Shown piece after piece: positions 4,593-45,060 of a stretch of 64,000 bases of DNA; position 1 is the stretch's first letter; each line of letters opens with the position of its first letter. The stretch is from NCBI RefSeq assembly GCF_001687335.1, contig NZ_MAGO01000001.1:186001-250000 (forward strand). Direction: 5' to 3'. The notes beneath the pieces were generated by a model. The model was given only the letters and a program-made list of their open reading frames with translations, searched no databases and was not told the origin of the DNA. The DNA is from Dissulfuribacter thermophilus (GTDB lineage Bacteria; Desulfobacterota; Dissulfuribacteria; Dissulfuribacterales; Dissulfuribacteraceae). A program made the translations under genes and the position numbers.

Positions 4593-5771
4593 ATGGCTAA
4601 ACGTGTTGGTGTAGAAGTATCCATTGCAGTGGCAGAGGCGGTCAAGCTCGCCCAGGCAGAGGTGATAGCTGCATATCCAATTACTCCTCAGACTCACATT
4701 GTGGAGCATCTTTCAGAGTTGGTTGCAGATGGAGAACTAGACGCAGAATTCATACCAGTGGAGTCTGAGCATGCTGCACTCAGTACATGCTGTGGTTCAG
4801 TAGCAGCAGGGGCGAGGACCTACACTGCCACAAGTTCACAGGGACTCATGCTAATGAGTGAGGTGCTCTATGTGGCATCAGGCATGAGGCTTCCTATAGT
4901 TATGACAGTTGCTAACAGGGCACTTTCTGCTCCTATTAGTATTTGGAATGACCATCAAGATATTATGATCCAAAGGGATAGCGGTTGGATCCAGACCTTT
5001 GCTGAAAATGGCCAGGAAGCCGTGGATCTTACTATTCACGCATTCAGGGTGGCAGAAGATCGAAAGGTCTCTCTCCCTATAATCGTAAATATTGACGGGT
5101 TTACTTTGAGTCACGTGATTGAGCCTATTGAGATCCCAGATCAGGAAGATGTGGATAGATATTTACCACCATTTAAACCTAAATATAAGCTCGATCCTAG
5201 AAAACCAATTTCTATGGGCCCTGTAGGAATACCAGAAGTCTATACAGAGGCTAGAATGGCCCATGACCAGGCAATTAGAAATGCAAAGAGATGGATTGTA
5301 AAGGCCTGGGATGAGTTTGAGGAAGTATTTGGCAGACGTTATAACCCCGTTGAAGAATACAGGACCGAAGACGCTGAAATCCTTCTTGTTACCATGGGAA
5401 GTATTTCTGAAACTGCTATGACGGCAGTGGATAAGATGCGTGAAGAGGGTAAGAAGGTTGGTCTCTTGAGGATCAGATTGTGGAGACCATTCCCAGGGCC
5501 TGAATTCAGGAAGGCGGCCAAGGGTGCCAAGGTCCTGGCTGTTATTGATAGGACACTTGCCCCAGGGGCAGCCAGTGGGCCTGTCTGTGAGGAATTGAAG
5601 GCGGTGTTCTATAAAGTCCCAGGAGCCCCCAAGATCTTTAACTTCATAGCTGGTCTTGGTGGCAGGGATGTAACGGTTGAACGTTTTGAAGAGATAGTGG
5701 ATAAGGCTGCTTTCTATGCAAAGAAGCGGCCCAAAGAACTCTATGAAGTGATTGGAGTGCGTGAAAAATGA
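4593..5771 (+). CDS. porA: Pyruvate:ferredoxin oxidoreductase, alpha subunit
   Basis: Alpha subunit of 392 residues. The N-terminal pyrimidine-binding region is marked by AYPITPQTHIVEHLSELVADG and the ATSSQGL block; the C-terminal transketolase-like domain contains LRIRLWRPFPGPEFRKA. Together with the beta subunit it forms the thiamine-diphosphate active site. The gene has a GAGGAGGAA ribosome binding site inside the end of porD and overlaps porB by four bases (ATGA), which supports co-translation of the complex. Confidence 0.95.
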   Translation: MAKRVGVEVSIAVAEAVKLAQAEVIAAYPITPQTHIVEHLSELVADGELDAEFIPVESEHAALSTCCGSVAAGARTYTATSSQGLMLMSEVLYVASGMRLPIVMTVANRALSAPISIWNDHQDIMIQRDSGWIQTFAENGQEAVDLTIHAFRVAEDRKVSLPIIVNIDGFTLSHVIEPIEIPDQEDVDRYLPPFKPKYKLDPRKPISMGPVGIPEVYTEARMAHDQAIRNAKRWIVKAWDEFEEVFGRRYNPVEEYRTEDAEILLVTMGSISETAMTAVDKMREEGKKVGLLRIRLWRPFPGPEFRKAAKGAKVLAVIDRTLAPGAASGPVCEELKAVFYKVPGAPKIFNFIAGLGGRDVTVERFEEIVDKAAFYAKKRPKELYEVIGVREK

Positions 5772-6706
5772 TACCTGAATTCGAAAAATTCAAAGGTTTT
5801 TCAGCAAAGAGATTGCCTAAAGAAGAAGGAATTGCCCCAGGGCACAGAGGGTGTCAGGGGTGTGGAGAGGTTCTGGCCTTAAGGATGGTCATGAAGGCCC
5901 TTGGAAAAGACATCATTGTATGCAGTGCCACAGGTTGTATGGAGATTATCACCTCTCCTTATCCTCAGAGCGCATGGAATGTACCATGGATCCACATTGC
6001 ATTTGAAAATGCTGCCGCAGTTGCCTCTGGTGTGGAATCAGCCCTTAAGGTTTTGAAGCGCAAAGGTAAACTCTCAAAGAAACATATAGATGTAGTTGCA
6101 ATTGGTGGTGACGGGGCTACAGGTGATATCGGACTTCAGTGGATTTCCGGTGCCTTTGAAAGGGGGCACGATATGGTCTATGTATGCCTTGACAATGAGG
6201 CCTACATGAACACTGGAGTGCAGCGCTCTGGGTGTACACCCTATGGTGCAATGACCACTACAAGCCCTCCAGGCAAACAGAGTATTGGGCAGGTCACCTG
6301 GAAGAAGAATATACCGCAAATCATGGTAGCCCATAATATACCCTATGTGGCCACAGCAAGCCCGGCTTACTATCTTGATCTAATGAACAAGATCAAGAAG
6401 GCAGCAATGGTAAAAGGTCCTGCATATGTGCATATTTACGCCCCATGTCCAACTGGTTGGGGTTCTAAAGGAGAGAAATCTGTTGAATATGCACGTCTTG
6501 CTGTAGAGACCAAGGTATTTCCACTTTACGAGGTGATCGAAGGAAAATATATTGTGAGCAGAAAGATCACCAAGCCAAAGCCAGTCTCTGAATACTTGAA
6601 GGGACAAAGGCGTTTTCGCCACTTGACAGAAGAGAATATTGAATATATTCAAAAGAGGGTGGATGAGGAATACGAGAAGATCCTTAGACTTGCAGAACTG
6701 CCATAA
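5768..6706 (+). CDS. porB: Pyruvate:ferredoxin oxidoreductase, beta subunit (TPP-binding)
   Basis: Beta subunit of 312 residues. The conserved cysteine motif CQGCGEVLALRMV near residue 30 and the thiamine-diphosphate signature GGDGATGDIG ... DNEAYMNTG are complete; a further cysteine in YAPCPTGWG is typical of the family. It ends the porGDAB operon and is followed within 50 bases by a rho-independent terminator. No frameshift or missing motif is seen. Confidence 0.95.
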   Translation: MIPEFEKFKGFSAKRLPKEEGIAPGHRGCQGCGEVLALRMVMKALGKDIIVCSATGCMEIITSPYPQSAWNVPWIHIAFENAAAVASGVESALKVLKRKGKLSKKHIDVVAIGGDGATGDIGLQWISGAFERGHDMVYVCLDNEAYMNTGVQRSGCTPYGAMTTTSPPGKQSIGQVTWKKNIPQIMVAHNIPYVATASPAYYLDLMNKIKKAAMVKGPAYVHIYAPCPTGWGSKGEKSVEYARLAVETKVFPLYEVIEGKYIVSRKITKPKPVSEYLKGQRRFRHLTEENIEYIQKRVDEEYEKILRLAELP

Positions 6707-6754
6707 ATAAGAATATGAAATTTTCATCCACATAATGGATGCATTACTTTCAAG

Positions 6755-6781
6755 GCCTCCCCAAAAGGGAGGCTTTTTTTT
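6755..6781 (+). terminator. Rho-independent terminator of porGDAB
   Basis: GCCTCCC, loop CAAAA, GGGAGGC, then eight T residues. A strong intrinsic terminator 49 bases after the porB stop. Confidence 0.9.
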
Positions 6782-6872
6782 GGTAAGAAGTAGGTAGAGT
6801 ACAGAAAAACGGGTGCTCTGTAACCGTTTAGTAATGATTTTTTTTTAGGGTGTATTTTAGCGGGGTGCAAAC

Positions 6873-39374: not shown

Positions 39375-39632
39375 CCCAGATTATGCACTTCAAATGCCTG
39401 ATAAAAGAATTTTTTCTGAATAATTTAATAGTTACCTGCATCTTTTTTAGTTGGTGCCTTCACCCAAGAGGTGGAACTCTATCAATCAATTTAATCTCAG
39501 ACATTTGAAGCCGCAAGGGGCTCGCAATTTTACCGAATCTGCTGCGTTGTCGGGAACTTGAAGTACCCTATAGTACGTCTGCGTACCCTCCGCCTCGCAT
39601 CTTCGGCAAACTTGCGAGCTGCGTAATCTGGG
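39375..39632. mobile_element. 258-bp inverted-repeat element (MITE), copy 1
   Basis: Begins CCCAGATTATGCA and ends TGCGTAATCTGGG, giving imperfect 13-bp terminal inverted repeats. It is flanked by ATAAT on both sides (39370-39374 and 39633-39637). Copy 2 at 43204-43461 has exactly the same length. The right part contains GCTCGCAATTTTACCGAATC, TGCTGCGTTGTCGGGAACTT and TTCGGCAAACTTGCGAGC, which can fold on itself. No coding frame: a non-autonomous element. Confidence 0.88.
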
Positions 39633-39649: not shown

Positions 39650-40579
39650 TCAATTGTCTAAGGGGCTTCTTACTCCTAAAATATTCTTTTTTGCCACATG
39701 AGTGTAAATCATCGTTGTCTGAACGCTTTTGTGCCCAAGGAGTTCCTGAACCGTTCGGATGTCATAACCATCCTCTAGGAGATGGGTGGCAAAGCTGTGT
39801 CTGAGCGTATGTACTGTTGCATTCTTTGTAATTCCAGAGGATTTTAGTGCCTGTTTGAAAGAACGTTGGACGCCAGTAGGATTAATATGGTGTCTTCTAA
39901 TAACAAGCGAAAGAGGGTCGACAGAAAGCCTTTGAGATGGAAAGATCCAGAACCACGCCCATTCCTTGCCGGCCTCAGGGTATTTTCGTTCTAGGGCATC
40001 AGGCATTTTTACTCCAGCAATACTGTTCTGCCTATCGCTTTTATATAGTTTTTTTACAGTTTTAAGGTGAGATTTCAAATCTTCCAAAATGGCTTCTGGG
40101 AGCAACGTGATTCTGTCTTTACCCCCCTTCCCTTCCCTAACATTTATAATCCGTCTTTCTTCGTCAATATCTTTAACCCTTAATCTAATCGCTTCATTGA
40201 GCCTAAGGCCCCCTCCATACATGATCCTTCCAATAAGGCCGTAAACCCCTTTCAAATTATTGAGGACCAATTGCACTTCGGTCTTTGTTAATACCACCGG
40301 TAGCCTACGCCTTTCTTTTGCTCTAACCGCATCGATATATGGTTCGATTTCCCTATCGAGAACATGGCGGAAGAGGAATACAAGGGCATGCAATGCCTGG
40401 TTTTGGGTGGAACCTGCAATTCTTTTTTCAACAACTAAATAGGTGAGGAAGTCCTGAACATCTGTGCCGCTAATTTCATCTACTGGTTTCTTCGAAAAAA
40501 GCTTAAACCTATCAATCCATGCTAAATAGGCCTGTTCAGTCCTATATGATCTCCTTTTAAGGCGCAATTTATGTTTCAT
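39650..40579 (-). CDS. intI: Integron integrase (IntI type), N-terminally damaged
   Basis: Tyrosine recombinase with catalytic R in GGGLRLNEAIRLRVKDID, HTLRHSFATHLL (HxxR), LLGHKSVQTT and the nucleophile in MIYTHV. The integron-specific insertion is present: PEAGKEWAWFWIFPSQRLS then DPLSLVIRRHHINPTGVQRS, which separates IntI from phage and XerC/D recombinases. The ORF starts at ATG 40579, but the same frame upstream encodes sensible IntI sequence (RQADEAIKLYNYFLSQLN) up to an in-frame TAA at 40697-40699 and beyond it (FLKKISSKFSE), so the N terminus has been interrupted. It may be inactive. Confidence 0.88.
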   Translation of the reverse strand: MKHKLRLKRRSYRTEQAYLAWIDRFKLFSKKPVDEISGTDVQDFLTYLVVEKRIAGSTQNQALHALVFLFRHVLDREIEPYIDAVRAKERRRLPVVLTKTEVQLVLNNLKGVYGLIGRIMYGGGLRLNEAIRLRVKDIDEERRIINVREGKGGKDRITLLPEAILEDLKSHLKTVKKLYKSDRQNSIAGVKMPDALERKYPEAGKEWAWFWIFPSQRLSVDPLSLVIRRHHINPTGVQRSFKQALKSSGITKNATVHTLRHSFATHLLEDGYDIRTVQELLGHKSVQTTMIYTHVAKKNILGVRSPLDN

Positions 40580-40810
40580 CTCTTCAACAGTTTTATCCCA
40601 TTCATTGGACGCAATAATTTTATTTGCCTCTGCTTTGTTAAGCTGTGAAAGAAAATAGTTATATAACTTAATCGCTTCATCTGCCTGTCTAATCTGTTAT
40701 TCACTAAATTTAGAGGAGATTTTTTTAGAAACCTTTCTTTTTGTGCTGAGGATAAAGAAACGCTGGGTTCAATTTTTGAAAATTTTAGGGCGTTTTCTAC
40801 CCAAAGTACT
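40580..40810 (-). pseudogene. intI: Separated N-terminal part of the integron integrase
   Basis: Same frame as the integrase, upstream of its ATG. Residues read LWVENALKFSKIEPSVSLSS, then QKERFLKKISSKFSE, stop, then QIRQADEAIKLYNYFL and so on into the ORF. No ATG, GTG or TTG in frame gives a convincing start. A single base change (stop to sense) would restore most of the gene. Confidence 0.55.
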
Positions 40811-41070
40811 AATGTAGATATTGAATAGTAATAATAATGATAAAAATTTTATATTTATACAGATAATATTATAAATATAAGAGTGAAAAATAAGAAACTA
40901 ACAACAAGTTTGAATTTATAAGAGAAAAATAAACTTTTTATTGTATTAATTAAATTAGTTTCATTATCCATCTAATAATAGCCATAGACGAATGCTTGAT
41001 TATTTAAAAATTATGATACTCAAAAAAATATTAATTCTAGCAGGAGATGGGAATATCTAATAAACAATAT

Positions 41071-41077
41071 GTTAGCC
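41071..41077 (+). other. Integron core site GTTAGCC: attI/cassette 1 boundary
   Basis: GTTAGCC 20 bases before cassette ORF 1. In an integron the TTRRRY half at a cassette's front should be complementary to the R'' core of the cassette's own attC. Here TTAGCC is the exact complement of GGCTAA in the GGCTAAC at 42332. The 260 AT-rich bases between the integrase frame and this site would hold attI; nothing else is recognised there. Confidence 0.6.
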
Positions 41078-41096
41078 CCTTAATACAGCTTTGATA

Positions 41097-42326
41097 ATGT
41101 CTCTTAAAGAAAAAATCATCGCCAGATGTGTTAAAGATTATGCTGGCAATGAGCCAATTATTGATGTAGGTAGTATCTTCCTAAAATTATTACTCTTTGA
41201 GTCATTTATTTTAGATTCTATTAGATTAAAAGAATTTAAAGTCTTAGTTGAGGCAATTGGCATTGAGCAAACATTACTTCTTCTTGATTCAGGAATATTG
41301 AAAATCAATTGTGATCCATTAACTATCGGCCAGACTGGTCAAGCAGGAATCCTAGAGAAACGTAAAAAAAAAGGAATATTACCTTTGGGATCATTTTCTC
41401 TCGATCTAATACAGATGGCTGATAAAAAAGCATTTATTAGCGACTGTTTACGAAATATACGTCCAAGAATTTTTGTTTCACGAAAGGACTTCAAAAAATT
41501 AAAATTAGCTATAGTAAACAAACTGATTGTTACGCCTTCTGGAATAGGGAAGGATGCATTAATCGGTATTAGAACAGATCTGTTAGGAAATGCAAATCTT
41601 ATTCGAAAATCTATTTCTCTATCAATACTTTCCCATCTCAACAAAAAAATACCCCCGGATTCTTTATCTGTTAAAGTAGAACAGATAGATGACAATGATT
41701 ATAGGCTTGAGTCTAATCTTGAAAAGAATTTAATGCTCTCAAAAGTAGATGCTCATAAGATTCTCGAACGTGGGATTTTGGGCATAGGTGGCCTCAATCT
41801 AAAAATCGCTACAATGAAACATTTTGATGCCTTGACTGGTTTTAAAGAGCAAGAAGTATATCTTTTTGATGAGAAATTAAAATTTTTATTTAATCGAGTG
41901 TTTCCTCATGAGTTTGAGAGACGATTCACAAGTTTGCTTTCCATAGTTGATCTGCCAAATTTCGACGGAGTAGGAACAGAATTTACCATAAATATAGAAA
42001 AATTTTTGAAGATAAGAGACTCTCAAGAATGCAAAGAATTTAGGTCATGGCTAATAAATTTGGATCAAATTGATGAAAAAGAAATTAAAGAGAGAATTTT
42101 ATCACTAAGAGCAAAAGTTTCTAGGCTCATAAGCTCGAAAACTGGCACAACAGTCAAGACTCTCGTAATCTCTGGAATAGGCCTTATTCCTGCACCTGCG
42201 GCTTCTTTTATAGGCTTAGGCTTAGATTTTTTGAGTTCATTTATAGCGGACAAATTTTTTAAAAAAGATGGAGTTGCCACATTTATTGGCCAGCAATATC
42301 CATCTATTTTTATGGAAAAACAATAA
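41097..42326 (+). CDS. Integron cassette ORF 1, protein of unknown function
   Basis: A 409-residue protein that I do not recognise. The first 340 residues are lysine/isoleucine-rich and helical, without signal peptide. Near the C terminus TVKTLVISGIGLIPAPAASF then IGLGLDFLSSFIADKFF forms a glycine-rich hydrophobic hairpin that could enter a membrane, followed by a short polar tail. Codon use is strongly AT-rich compared with neighbouring housekeeping genes. It is bounded by a core site 20 bases upstream and an attC immediately after the stop, the layout of a gene cassette. The ATG at 41097 is preferred to the TTG at 41091; neither has a good ribosome binding site. Confidence 0.75.
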   Translation: MSLKEKIIARCVKDYAGNEPIIDVGSIFLKLLLFESFILDSIRLKEFKVLVEAIGIEQTLLLLDSGILKINCDPLTIGQTGQAGILEKRKKKGILPLGSFSLDLIQMADKKAFISDCLRNIRPRIFVSRKDFKKLKLAIVNKLIVTPSGIGKDALIGIRTDLLGNANLIRKSISLSILSHLNKKIPPDSLSVKVEQIDDNDYRLESNLEKNLMLSKVDAHKILERGILGIGGLNLKIATMKHFDALTGFKEQEVYLFDEKLKFLFNRVFPHEFERRFTSLLSIVDLPNFDGVGTEFTINIEKFLKIRDSQECKEFRSWLINLDQIDEKEIKERILSLRAKVSRLISSKTGTTVKTLVISGIGLIPAPAASFIGLGLDFLSSFIADKFFKKDGVATFIGQQYPSIFMEKQ

Positions 42327-42331
42327 GTTAT

Positions 42332-42417
42332 GGCTAACAATTGGGTCCACCTGACCGCCATTCCGCTGCGGGCTTCGCCCTTGCGTCTTGTTGGCAAGTG
42401 ACCCTCGTCGTTGAGGC
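42332..42417 (+). other. attC site of cassette 1 (R' core interrupted by IS)
   Basis: R'' GGCTAAC (42332-42338) six bases after the stop; L'' GGGTCCAC (42343-42350) pairs with L' GTGACCC (42398-42404) leaving one unpaired C, the extrahelical base typical of attC; an imperfect stem with GGGCTTCGCCC lies between. The R' core starts at G42410 and is broken after GTT by an IS. The expected GTTAGGT reappears at 44474. Confidence 0.65.
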
Positions 42418-42511
42418 TGTAGAAAAATCCTTAAGCGCGCTAGATTATTGCATTTTTTTTCTGGGAGGTGTGGTATATAACTGTTAATGACATTGAGTAA
42501 AGGATTGACTA

Positions 42512-44310
42512 ATGGCGCGTTTTAAGAAGTATTCATATAAGCAAGGTAAGTTTATTCCTATACATTTCGAGAAGCAAATTCTTCCAGGTACTTTTGAATA
42601 TGTACTCCATTATTTGATTGATAATGAAGTAGACCTTTCTGTATTCATACAGCGCTATAAGAATGATGAAGTGGGTGCGCTGCCTATGATCCAGCTATTC
42701 TGCTCAAGATTATTTTGTCTGCATATTCTAAAGGAATAGTTTCCAGCAGGAAAATAGCCCAGTGTTGTCGAGAGAATGTAATCTTCATGGCCCTATCTGC
42801 TGATACAAGACCTCATTTTACCACCATAGCCAATTTCATCTCTTCACTGGATCAAGAAGTGGTCCAGTTGTTCCGTGACATTCTCCTTGTATGTGACGAG
42901 ATGGGACTAGTGGGTAAAGAGATGTTTGCACTGGATGGGTGCAAACTTCCATCCAATGCATCAAAAGAGTGGAGCGGTACCAGGGCTGACTTTGAGAAGA
43001 AGTGTAAGAAGTTGGAACATGCCATCCAGGCCATGATAGACAACCACAGGGAACTGGACCTGAAAGAGACAGACCATGAGCTTATCTCTCGTGAGAAAAA
43101 GTACATAGAAAGCCTTAAAAAGCAGGTAAAGAAGATAAGGGACTGGATGGATAACAATGATGACAAGCCAGGCAGAGGTGGAGGAATAAGGAAGAGCAAT
43201 ATACCCAGATTATGCATTTTAAATGCCTTAGAAAGGGATTTTTTCTGAATAATTCAATAGTTAGCTGCAACTTATCCAGTTCGTTCTTTCACCAAAAAGG
43301 TACGGCTTCATCCGGTGTTTATATCTCAGGCGTTTGAAGCTGCAAGGGGCTCGCAATTTTACCGAATCTGCTGCGTTGTCGGGAACTTGAAGTACCCTAT
43401 AGTACGTTTGCGTACCCTCCGCCTCACATCTTCGGCAAACTTGCGAGCTGCATAATCTGGGATATAAACGACAACGAAAGTGCAAAGATGAAGACCTCTA
43501 AGGGAGTGATTCAGGGTTACAATGGCCTGGCCATGGTAGATGCCAAGCATCAGGTGATAGTACATGCAGAGGCCTTTGGAGATGGGCAGGAGCAACACCT
43601 GTTGGAGCCCATGATAGAAGGGACCAGCAAGCACCTTTAAGGTGCTGTCTTCTGATAAAGATATTTTTAAAAAAGCAAAGTTGACTGCTGATGCTGGATT
43701 TCACACAAAGAAGAACATGGAGATGGTCTTCAGCCAGGGGATAGACGCCTATATAGCAGACAGACATTTTCGCAAACGAGATCCCAGGTTCAGGGATCGA
43801 AATCGTTTCAAACAAATAGCTCGAAAGGAGAGAAAATCCCGCTGGTTCACGTCCAGAGATTTTATTTTTGATATGGAGCAACAGATCTGTATTTGTCCTG
43901 CCTGGAAACATCTTTATGTAAAGAACAAGAATTTTGTAACTAGAAATGGTTACAAGGCCATAGCCTTTATGGGTAAAAAGACCGAATGCAGGGTCTGTAA
44001 GCTTCGTGAGCGATGTCTGCGATATCCAGACAGGACCGAGATTCGGCAGGTACACTTTTTTATGGCAAGGAGAATAGTGCAGGCAGCACCTTCATAGAAA
44101 AGATGAAGGGGAAGATAGATTAAAGTCGTGGCCGTTTGTTTACAGCAAGCGCATAGGTACAGTGGAACCGGTATTTGCTCACATCTGTTCAGTGCTTGGT
44201 CTTAACCGTTTTACCCTCAGAGGCAAGCGCAAGTAAATACCCAATGGCTTTTTTACTGCATAGTGTACAATACCGTCAAAATTCACCGATATGCACCTGG
44301 ATTTACTTGA
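42512..44310 (+). pseudogene. IS1182-family transposase, frameshifted and interrupted
   Basis: Pieces in order: MARFKKYSYKQGKFIPIHFE ... NDEVGAL (frame 42512); after a one-base loss near 42680, AYDPAILLKIILSAYSKGIV and SSRKIAQCCRENVIFMAL to IRKSNI at 43203; the 258-bp element; then INDNESAKMKTSKGVIQGYN from 43464 to a stop at 43640; a frame change, then KLTADAGFHTKKNMEMVFSQ and CRVCKLRERCLRYPD to 44097; and finally YSKRIGTVEPVFAHICSVLG and NTQWLFYCIVYNTVKIHRY with further stops and shifts. At least three frame changes besides the insertion: clearly dead. Confidence 0.85.
43204..43461. mobile_element. 258-bp inverted-repeat element (MITE), copy 2, inside the transposase
   Basis: Starts CCCAGATTATGCA, ends TGCATAATCTGGG: perfect 13-bp inverted repeats. 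Flanked by ATATA at 43199-43203 and 43462-43466. Deleting the element plus one ATATA rejoins the transposase frame exactly (...KSNI then NDNESAKMKTS). Same length and about the same internal sequence as copy 1, with the right half most conserved. Confidence 0.92.
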
Positions 44311-44473
44311 TAGGAATATCTTGAACATGAAATGAGGTTGGTATAAAAAAGGAAAAATAAGGATGGAGTTGGGTTCCTCACGGTTCCCACCATTATTTCT
44401 GTAACTAGATTTTTTGAGGGGAATAGATGCCCAGAATGGAATCAGGCTGAAATTTATATTTTTATACAGACTT

Positions 44474-44480
44474 GTTAGGT
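44474..44480 (+). other. Integron core site GTTAGGT at the front of cassette 2
   Basis: GTTAGGT fits the GTTRRRY consensus perfectly and stands six bases before the ATG of the HEPN-like ORF. It directly follows the IS right end, so it is the displaced R' core of the attC of cassette 1. Confidence 0.55.
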
Positions 44481-44485
44481 GAAAG

Positions 44486-45034
44486 ATGAATTATAAGATG
44501 ATGACAGATTTAGAACTTTTGAAACTTAGTATTCCAGATAGGTACTTTAAATATTCAAAAGCCTATGGTAGTGCTGCGAAAATTCTTGCAGAAAGAATAG
44601 TCAAAGATAAGGATCAAGCAACTTGGCCGAACGCCGCTGTAATATTGATGCTCACAGCTCATTCTGTAGAGCTATTTCTCAAAGGCGCCATATTAAAAAA
44701 AGATTCAAAAGCCGACCGAAAGATAAGGCATCATCATATTGAGTCTCTATATGAGATGTATTGCGAGATATATAAAGATGAAAAATATAGTTTTAATTTG
44801 CCATTTAAAACTGAGTACTTGGGTATGTCTCAAGCGGAAATAGATGTGTTGAAAAAAAATAGAAATAAAAAAAATAGAAATAAATATTCAGAACCGAGTG
44901 TATTATACAGGTACCCAACTGCATCAGGTGAGAGCGAATGGGAAGGTGTATATGCATTTGAGGCTTCCTCTTTCTTTTCTAAGATATGTCAATTATTAGA
45001 AGATATTCATAGGTTGAGAAAATCTTTCACATAA
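44486..45034 (+). CDS. Integron cassette ORF 2, HEPN-like protein
   Basis: A 182-residue, AT-rich gene. The segment NAAVILMLTAHSVELFLKGA and the following IRHHHIESLYEMYCEIYKDE resemble the two-helix core of HEPN-superfamily proteins (the LELFLKA-type helix followed by a histidine-containing segment), which include RNase toxins and defence proteins. The canonical RxxxxH is not clearly present, so activity is uncertain. It has no signal or membrane helix. GTTAGGT immediately upstream and ACATAAC spanning its stop mark it as a gene cassette. A toxin/defence role is possible but only inferred. Confidence 0.65.
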   Translation: MNYKMMTDLELLKLSIPDRYFKYSKAYGSAAKILAERIVKDKDQATWPNAAVILMLTAHSVELFLKGAILKKDSKADRKIRHHHIESLYEMYCEIYKDEKYSFNLPFKTEYLGMSQAEIDVLKKNRNKKNRNKYSEPSVLYRYPTASGESEWEGVYAFEASSFFSKICQLLEDIHRLRKSFT

Positions 45035-45060
45035 CAAATCGCTATCTTTAGGCTAAATTT
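45029..45060 (+). other. Truncated attC of cassette 2
   Basis: ACATAAC (45029-45035) overlaps the stop of the HEPN-like gene. The front core of this cassette is TTAGGT, so the R'' should be ACCTAAC; the observed site differs at one base. No L'/R' partner is found downstream, so the rest of the attC appears lost. Confidence 0.4.

What the first reader, a model, noticed from the sequence alone, without database searches (positions are those of the whole stretch)
43199..43466. A 258-bp non-coding element cleanly inserted in a transposase gene, with perfect ends and a 5-bp duplication
The element begins CCCAGATTATGCA and ends with its exact complement. ATATA flanks both sides. Removing the element and one ATATA restores the transposase reading frame through the join (KSNI-NDNESAKMK). 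This proves it moved after the IS arrived. It has no ORF, so a transposase must act in trans. Ends starting CCC and a 5-bp duplication might suit an IS1380-like or related DDE transposase, but that is only a guess.
Basis: partly seen in the sequence, partly recalled or inferred. Interest (0 to 1): 0.8.

Follow-up and report, generated by a model that had tools for sequence, protein, structure and literature searches.

The report
IS1380-type MITE inside an IS1182 transposase
The 258-base insert is a miniature, gene-less transposon, one of dozens of relatives in this genome, that was almost certainly moved by the transposase of a full-size IS1380-type element now surviving here only as a decayed fragment; it is a well-made but ordinary kind of bacterial mobile DNA.

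Summary
Observation confirmed: 43204-43461 (258 bp), perfect 13-bp terminal inverted repeats (CCCAGATTATGCA), 5-bp ATATA duplication, transposase frame restored on excision. Uninterrupted homologues exist elsewhere. It is a MITE: about 20 full-length copies and about 30 fragments lie in the same 2.52-Mb genome, mostly with their own 5-bp duplications (target WTNAW), and the family recurs in 29 of 46 genomes of the order. One inference fails: this copy did not demonstrably jump after the IS reached this site. A second IS1182 copy carries the MITE at the same base, and MITE and IS have diverged equally (93.4% against 94.7/92.7%), so the MITE was inside before the IS spread. Extra: the interior forms a branched, base-paired structure whose arms covary across the family without strand bias, pointing to DNA palindromes rather than an RNA. 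The host IS1182 copies mostly sit at the 3' core of integron attC-like sites. New member of a known kind.

The parts
43204..43461 (+). IS1380-type MITE, 258 bp, no ORF of its own
   Evidence: 49 DNA matches in home genome
43204..43216 (+). left terminal inverted repeat CCCAGATTATGCA
   Evidence: 89 exact CCCRRATTATGCA sites genome-wide against 0 in control
43449..43461 (-). right terminal inverted repeat (exact complement); extended end CCCAGATTATGCAGCTCGCA matches the upstream end of IS1380 copies in the order
43199..43203 (.). target duplication ATATA (left)
43462..43466 (.). target duplication ATATA (right)
43349..43448 (.). right hairpin arm (GCTCGCAATTTTACCGAA ... TTCGGCAAACTTGCGAGC), covarying across the family
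42413..44473 (+). host IS1182-family element (DUF772 / DDE_Tnp_1_6 transposase, frameshifted, interrupted by the MITE); ends inferred GAGGCTGTAGAAAAA / TTTTTATACAGACTT
   Evidence: (NF033551, partial match below cut-off)
39375..39632 (+). second full-length MITE copy (86% identical), TSD ATAAT, beside an integron integrase gene
   Evidence: L003

Best explanation
[quoted passage not shown] A DDE transposase of the IS1380 family, supplied in trans by a full-size element, recognised its CCCRRATTATGCA ends and inserted it into an A/T-rich WTNAW pentamer, duplicating five bases (ends, duplications and matching IS1380 ends are shown; the enzyme's action is inferred). This insertion happened once, in an ancestral IS1182 transposase gene; that interrupted IS was then copied to other places, one being this window (supported by equal divergence). 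The home genome has lost the helper except for a relic, so the family is probably immobile there today (inferred). The interior keeps a branched palindromic fold by compensatory change, most likely at DNA level (covariation shown; reason inferred).
For: Perfect TIR, TSD and frame restoration. Multi-copy with independent TSDs, 13 of 14 exact TSDs fitting WTNAW against 2.6% background. Same ends with exact 5-bp TSD in 41 of 54 elements across other genomes. IS1380 transposase genes in G029, G011, G017, G019 and G009 have ends such as CCCAAATTATGCACTTC, CCCGAATTATGCAGCTC and CCCAAATTATGCAGCTCGCA; NF033539 above cut-off for L079. Intact IS1380 in G111 (L078): CCTGAATTATGCAC ends, 1816 bp, TSD TTTAA. 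IS1247 (IS1380) makes 5-bp DRs (PMC3281130). Home relic: C9:118674-118877 with a degenerate end TCCAAATTATGTAGCAC about 200 bp downstream. All seven order genomes with this IS1380 lineage, the relic included, carry the MITE.
Against: No intact IS1380 with exactly CCCRRATTATGCA ends was found; the in-order ones are truncated or decayed. Similarity between MITE and IS1380 is limited to the terminal ~17-20 bp, so the MITE is not a plain deletion derivative of any IS seen. No transposition was observed.
Confidence: 0.9

Rival explanations
1. A MITE with these ends but mobilised by a different transposase family (for example an unrecognised DDE element), the IS1380 end similarity being convergent.
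For: No intact exact-match IS1380 partner found in the home genome or order; the match is confined to the ends.
Against: Both MITE end types (CACTTC and CAGCTCG) are found on IS1380 elements of the same order, a decayed IS1380 bounded on both sides by such ends exists (L163, 1672 bp), and the 5-bp TSD agrees.
Confidence: 0.07
2. A structured non-coding RNA gene that happens to be mobile (the conserved fold acts as RNA).
For: Strong covariation: 91.5% of cells paired, 177 double-changed cells against 54 in shuffles, partners slid by 1-3 columns drop to 30-40%.
Against: G-U and A-C intermediates are equally frequent (151 against 144), i.e. no strand preference; no Rfam match; elements in other phyla with the same ends have unrelated folds or none.
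Confidence: 0.04
3. An ordinary insertion/deletion polymorphism of coding sequence, not a mobile element.
For: None beyond position inside an ORF.
Against: Homologous transposases lack the segment; the unit recurs at many unrelated loci with its own duplications.
Confidence: 0.005

Closest known systems
IS1380 family (ISEcp1, IS1247, ISPme1)
   Same: CC-starting inverted repeats of about 13-16 bp; 5-bp A/T-rich target duplication; end sequences shared with IS1380 copies of the same order
   Different: No transposase; interior unrelated to IS1380
Bacterial MITEs (e.g. MITEPye1, MITEAba12, QMITEs)
   Same: Short, non-coding, TIRs plus TSD, multi-copy, dependent on a helper IS, folds on itself
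   Different: I found no described IS1380-driven MITE in the searchable papers; three-branched fold with compensatory change
Integron-flanking MITEs of Acinetobacter
   Same: MITE copies lie near an integron integrase in this window
   Different: Unrelated sequence (judged from the descriptions, not aligned); no sign here that MITEs move the integron as a unit

Membership tests
MITE | short, no transposase gene | tested here: met
   258 bp; only chance ORFs crossing its borders
MITE | terminal inverted repeats and target duplication | tested here: met
MITE | multiple copies at unrelated sites | tested here: met
MITE | ends shared with an autonomous element | tested here: met
   IS1380 copies in G029, G011, G017, G019, G009; those copies are truncated or decayed, so met for ends, not for an intact partner
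MITE | moves in trans | not testable with these tools
   needs a mobility assay
IS1380-derived | CC-starting TIR and 4-5-bp duplication | tested here: met
   5-bp DR for IS1247 in PMC3281130
IS1380-derived | IS1380 helper in the same genome | tested here: inconclusive
   PF13701 absent; only a 71-residue relic with one stop
IS1380-derived | interior derived from the IS | tested here: not met
   no convincing DNA match to the fetched IS1380 loci beyond the ends
Structured RNA | one-strand (G-U biased) covariation | tested here: not met
   151 G-U against 144 A-C cells

The most novel reading that the evidence does not exclude
The three-branched palindromic architecture is itself under selection as DNA (extruded or single-stranded hairpins) because it promotes transposase action or survival of the element, giving structured MITEs that keep their shape while their sequence turns over.
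Probability: 0.25. Interest if true: 0.5.

Novelty: new member of a known kind. Interest (0 to 1): 0.33.

Why it matters
It gives a clean, orderable example of nested mobile DNA (MITE in IS in integron site) and ties a widespread MITE family, found largely in uncultured Deltaproteobacteria, to IS1380, a family best known for spreading resistance genes. The covarying, strand-neutral palindromes make it possible to test whether hairpin shape matters for MITE movement or merely arises by palindrome-correcting mutation.

Tried and rejected
Coding-sequence reading: rejected by uninterrupted homologues. RNA-gene reading: no Rfam match in the window, no strand bias. Internal-deletion derivative of IS1380: no interior similarity. 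Intact helper with exact ends: not found in 46 order genomes or about 400 phylum genomes; other IS1380 copies in the phylum mostly have other ends. Phage carriage: no match in viral contigs with the exact paired-end pattern. A universal fold for all elements with these ends: rejected; Acidobacteria and Ignavibacteria elements form one long hairpin, Bacteroidia ones little structure.

Full report
Observation. The sequence at 43199-43466 reads ATATA-CCCAGATTATGCA...TGCATAATCTGGG-ATATA; the element proper is 43204-43461, 258 bp. The 13-bp ends are perfect complements. Removing the element and one ATATA restores the IS1182-type reading frame ...RKSNI|NDNES.... The host gene is an IS1182-family transposase (DUF772, DDE_Tnp_1_6; partial match to NF033551), already frameshifted elsewhere. 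Uninterrupted homologues with 64-68% identity across the join exist in other genomes of the phylum.

It is a repeat family. The home genome (2.52 Mb, 27 contigs) has 49 DNA matches, about 20 of them full length, the others 77-94% identical to this one. Exact CCCRRATTATGCA occurs 89 times against none for the reversed control. Of 21 full or nearly full copies, 14 have exact 5-bp duplications and 5 differ by one base; the two others share an eroded IS1182 flank. 13 of 14 exact duplications fit WTNAW (background 2.6%). Relatives: 29 of 46 genomes of the order. An exact paired-end scan of about 85,000 species genomes returned 53 stretches, mostly Deltaproteobacteria MAGs but also Bacteroidia, Ignavibacteria, Acidobacteria, Chitinivibrionales and Campylobacteraceae; 41 of 54 elements there have exact 5-bp duplications. 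Thirteen of them, most from those other groups, share the ends but not the interior.

Helper. PF13701 has no hit in the home genome. Within the order, IS1380 transposase genes of one lineage occur in G029, G011, G017, G019, G013 and G009, and where their flanks could be read they end in CCCAAATTATGCACTTC (L079), CCCGAATTATGCAGCTC (L092/L162), CCCAAATTATGCAGCTCGCA (L163), CCCAAATTATGCAGTTCGAA (L164) and so on. These are the two end types of the MITE: CACTTC on the left, CAGCTCG on the right. L163 is a complete but decayed 1672-bp element with such ends on both sides. An intact IS1380 in a more distant genome (L078) has CCTGAATTATGCAC ends and a TTTAA duplication. A home-genome relic (C9:118674-118877, 47% identity over 71 residues, one stop) lies about 200 bp from TCCAAATTATGTAGCAC. 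Five-base duplications are documented for the IS1380 member IS1247 (PMC3281130). The helper assignment is therefore strong, though no intact exact partner was found.

Timing. A second IS1182 copy at C16:23823-25826 carries the MITE at the same base with the same left ATATA but lies in a different place. Identity between the two is 94.7% (IS left), 93.4% (MITE) and 92.7% (IS right). The MITE thus predates the split of the two IS copies; transfer by gene conversion between copies is a less simple alternative. A third partial copy, C16:19487-20680, looks recombinant: its MITE left half belongs to another subfamily beside a tRNA gene, its right half is 97.8% identical to the C16 neighbour and continues into IS1182, so MITEs also appear to serve as recombination sites here.

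Structure. Forty-two diverse elements were aligned. The common fold has the TIR stem, a left arm, a tiny central hairpin and a right arm. 91.5% of cells pair against 30-40% when partners are slid, and double changes number 177 against 54 in shuffles. The clearest case is a second subfamily in which CTTCAAATGCCTGAG / CTCAGGCATTTGAAG becomes CTACGAAAGAGGGCA / TGCCCTCTTTCGCAG, and GGCTCGCAATTTTACCGAA / TTCGGCAAACTTGCGAGCT becomes GATTGGCGATTTTGCCCAA / TTGGGCAAACTCGCCAATT. Cells count sequences, not events, so the number of independent changes is smaller, and the structure was derived from the same sequences. G-U and A-C intermediates are equal (151 and 144), which argues for DNA palindromes and against an RNA product. 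Selection on hairpins and quasi-palindrome correction during replication (own knowledge) are both possible.

Verdict. A confirmed MITE, apparently undescribed as a family but of a known kind. The IS1380 guess is supported; the claim about when it moved is corrected.

Noticed in passing
42335-42412, 42413-44473, 44474-44480; L158, L159, L160, L161: The IS1182 copies of this genome mostly lie at the 3' core of integron attC-like sites (left flank ...TCGTT|GAGGCTGTAGAAAAA, right ...TTTTTATACAGACTC|GTTRGGY). This looks like an attC-targeting IS1182 group, comparable to IS1111-attC; the IS1182-related IS1272 is reported to target inverted repeats (PMC5678879).
   Followed up: partly
39650-40579 (-) and 40600-45050: Integron integrase (TIGR02249, 402 bits) with only a remnant of a cassette array beside it; a MITE copy (39375-39632) abuts its 3' end.
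   Followed up: partly
L158 (C16) 5487-6756: Chimeric MITE joining a tRNA-side MITE subfamily to an IS1182-borne MITE: evidence of MITE-to-MITE recombination.
   Followed up: yes
L161 (C14) 6469-6800: Another MITE end (TGCATAATTTGGG) abuts an IS1182 fragment at a different internal position, with the rest of the IS missing; possible independent insertion or deletion.
   Followed up: no
L108, L121, L104, L129: Acidobacteria and Ignavibacteria elements with the same ends form nearly perfect long hairpins (-119 to -158 kcal/mol as RNA) with unrelated sequence.
   Followed up: partly
L160 (C20) 2558-2984: Group II intron domains next to attC-like sites.
   Followed up: no
home genome, C1:30747-30823, C1:319406-319498, C2:79156-79254, C22:2509-2567: Paired MITE-type ends only 59-99 bp apart: probably deletion derivatives of the MITE.
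   Followed up: no
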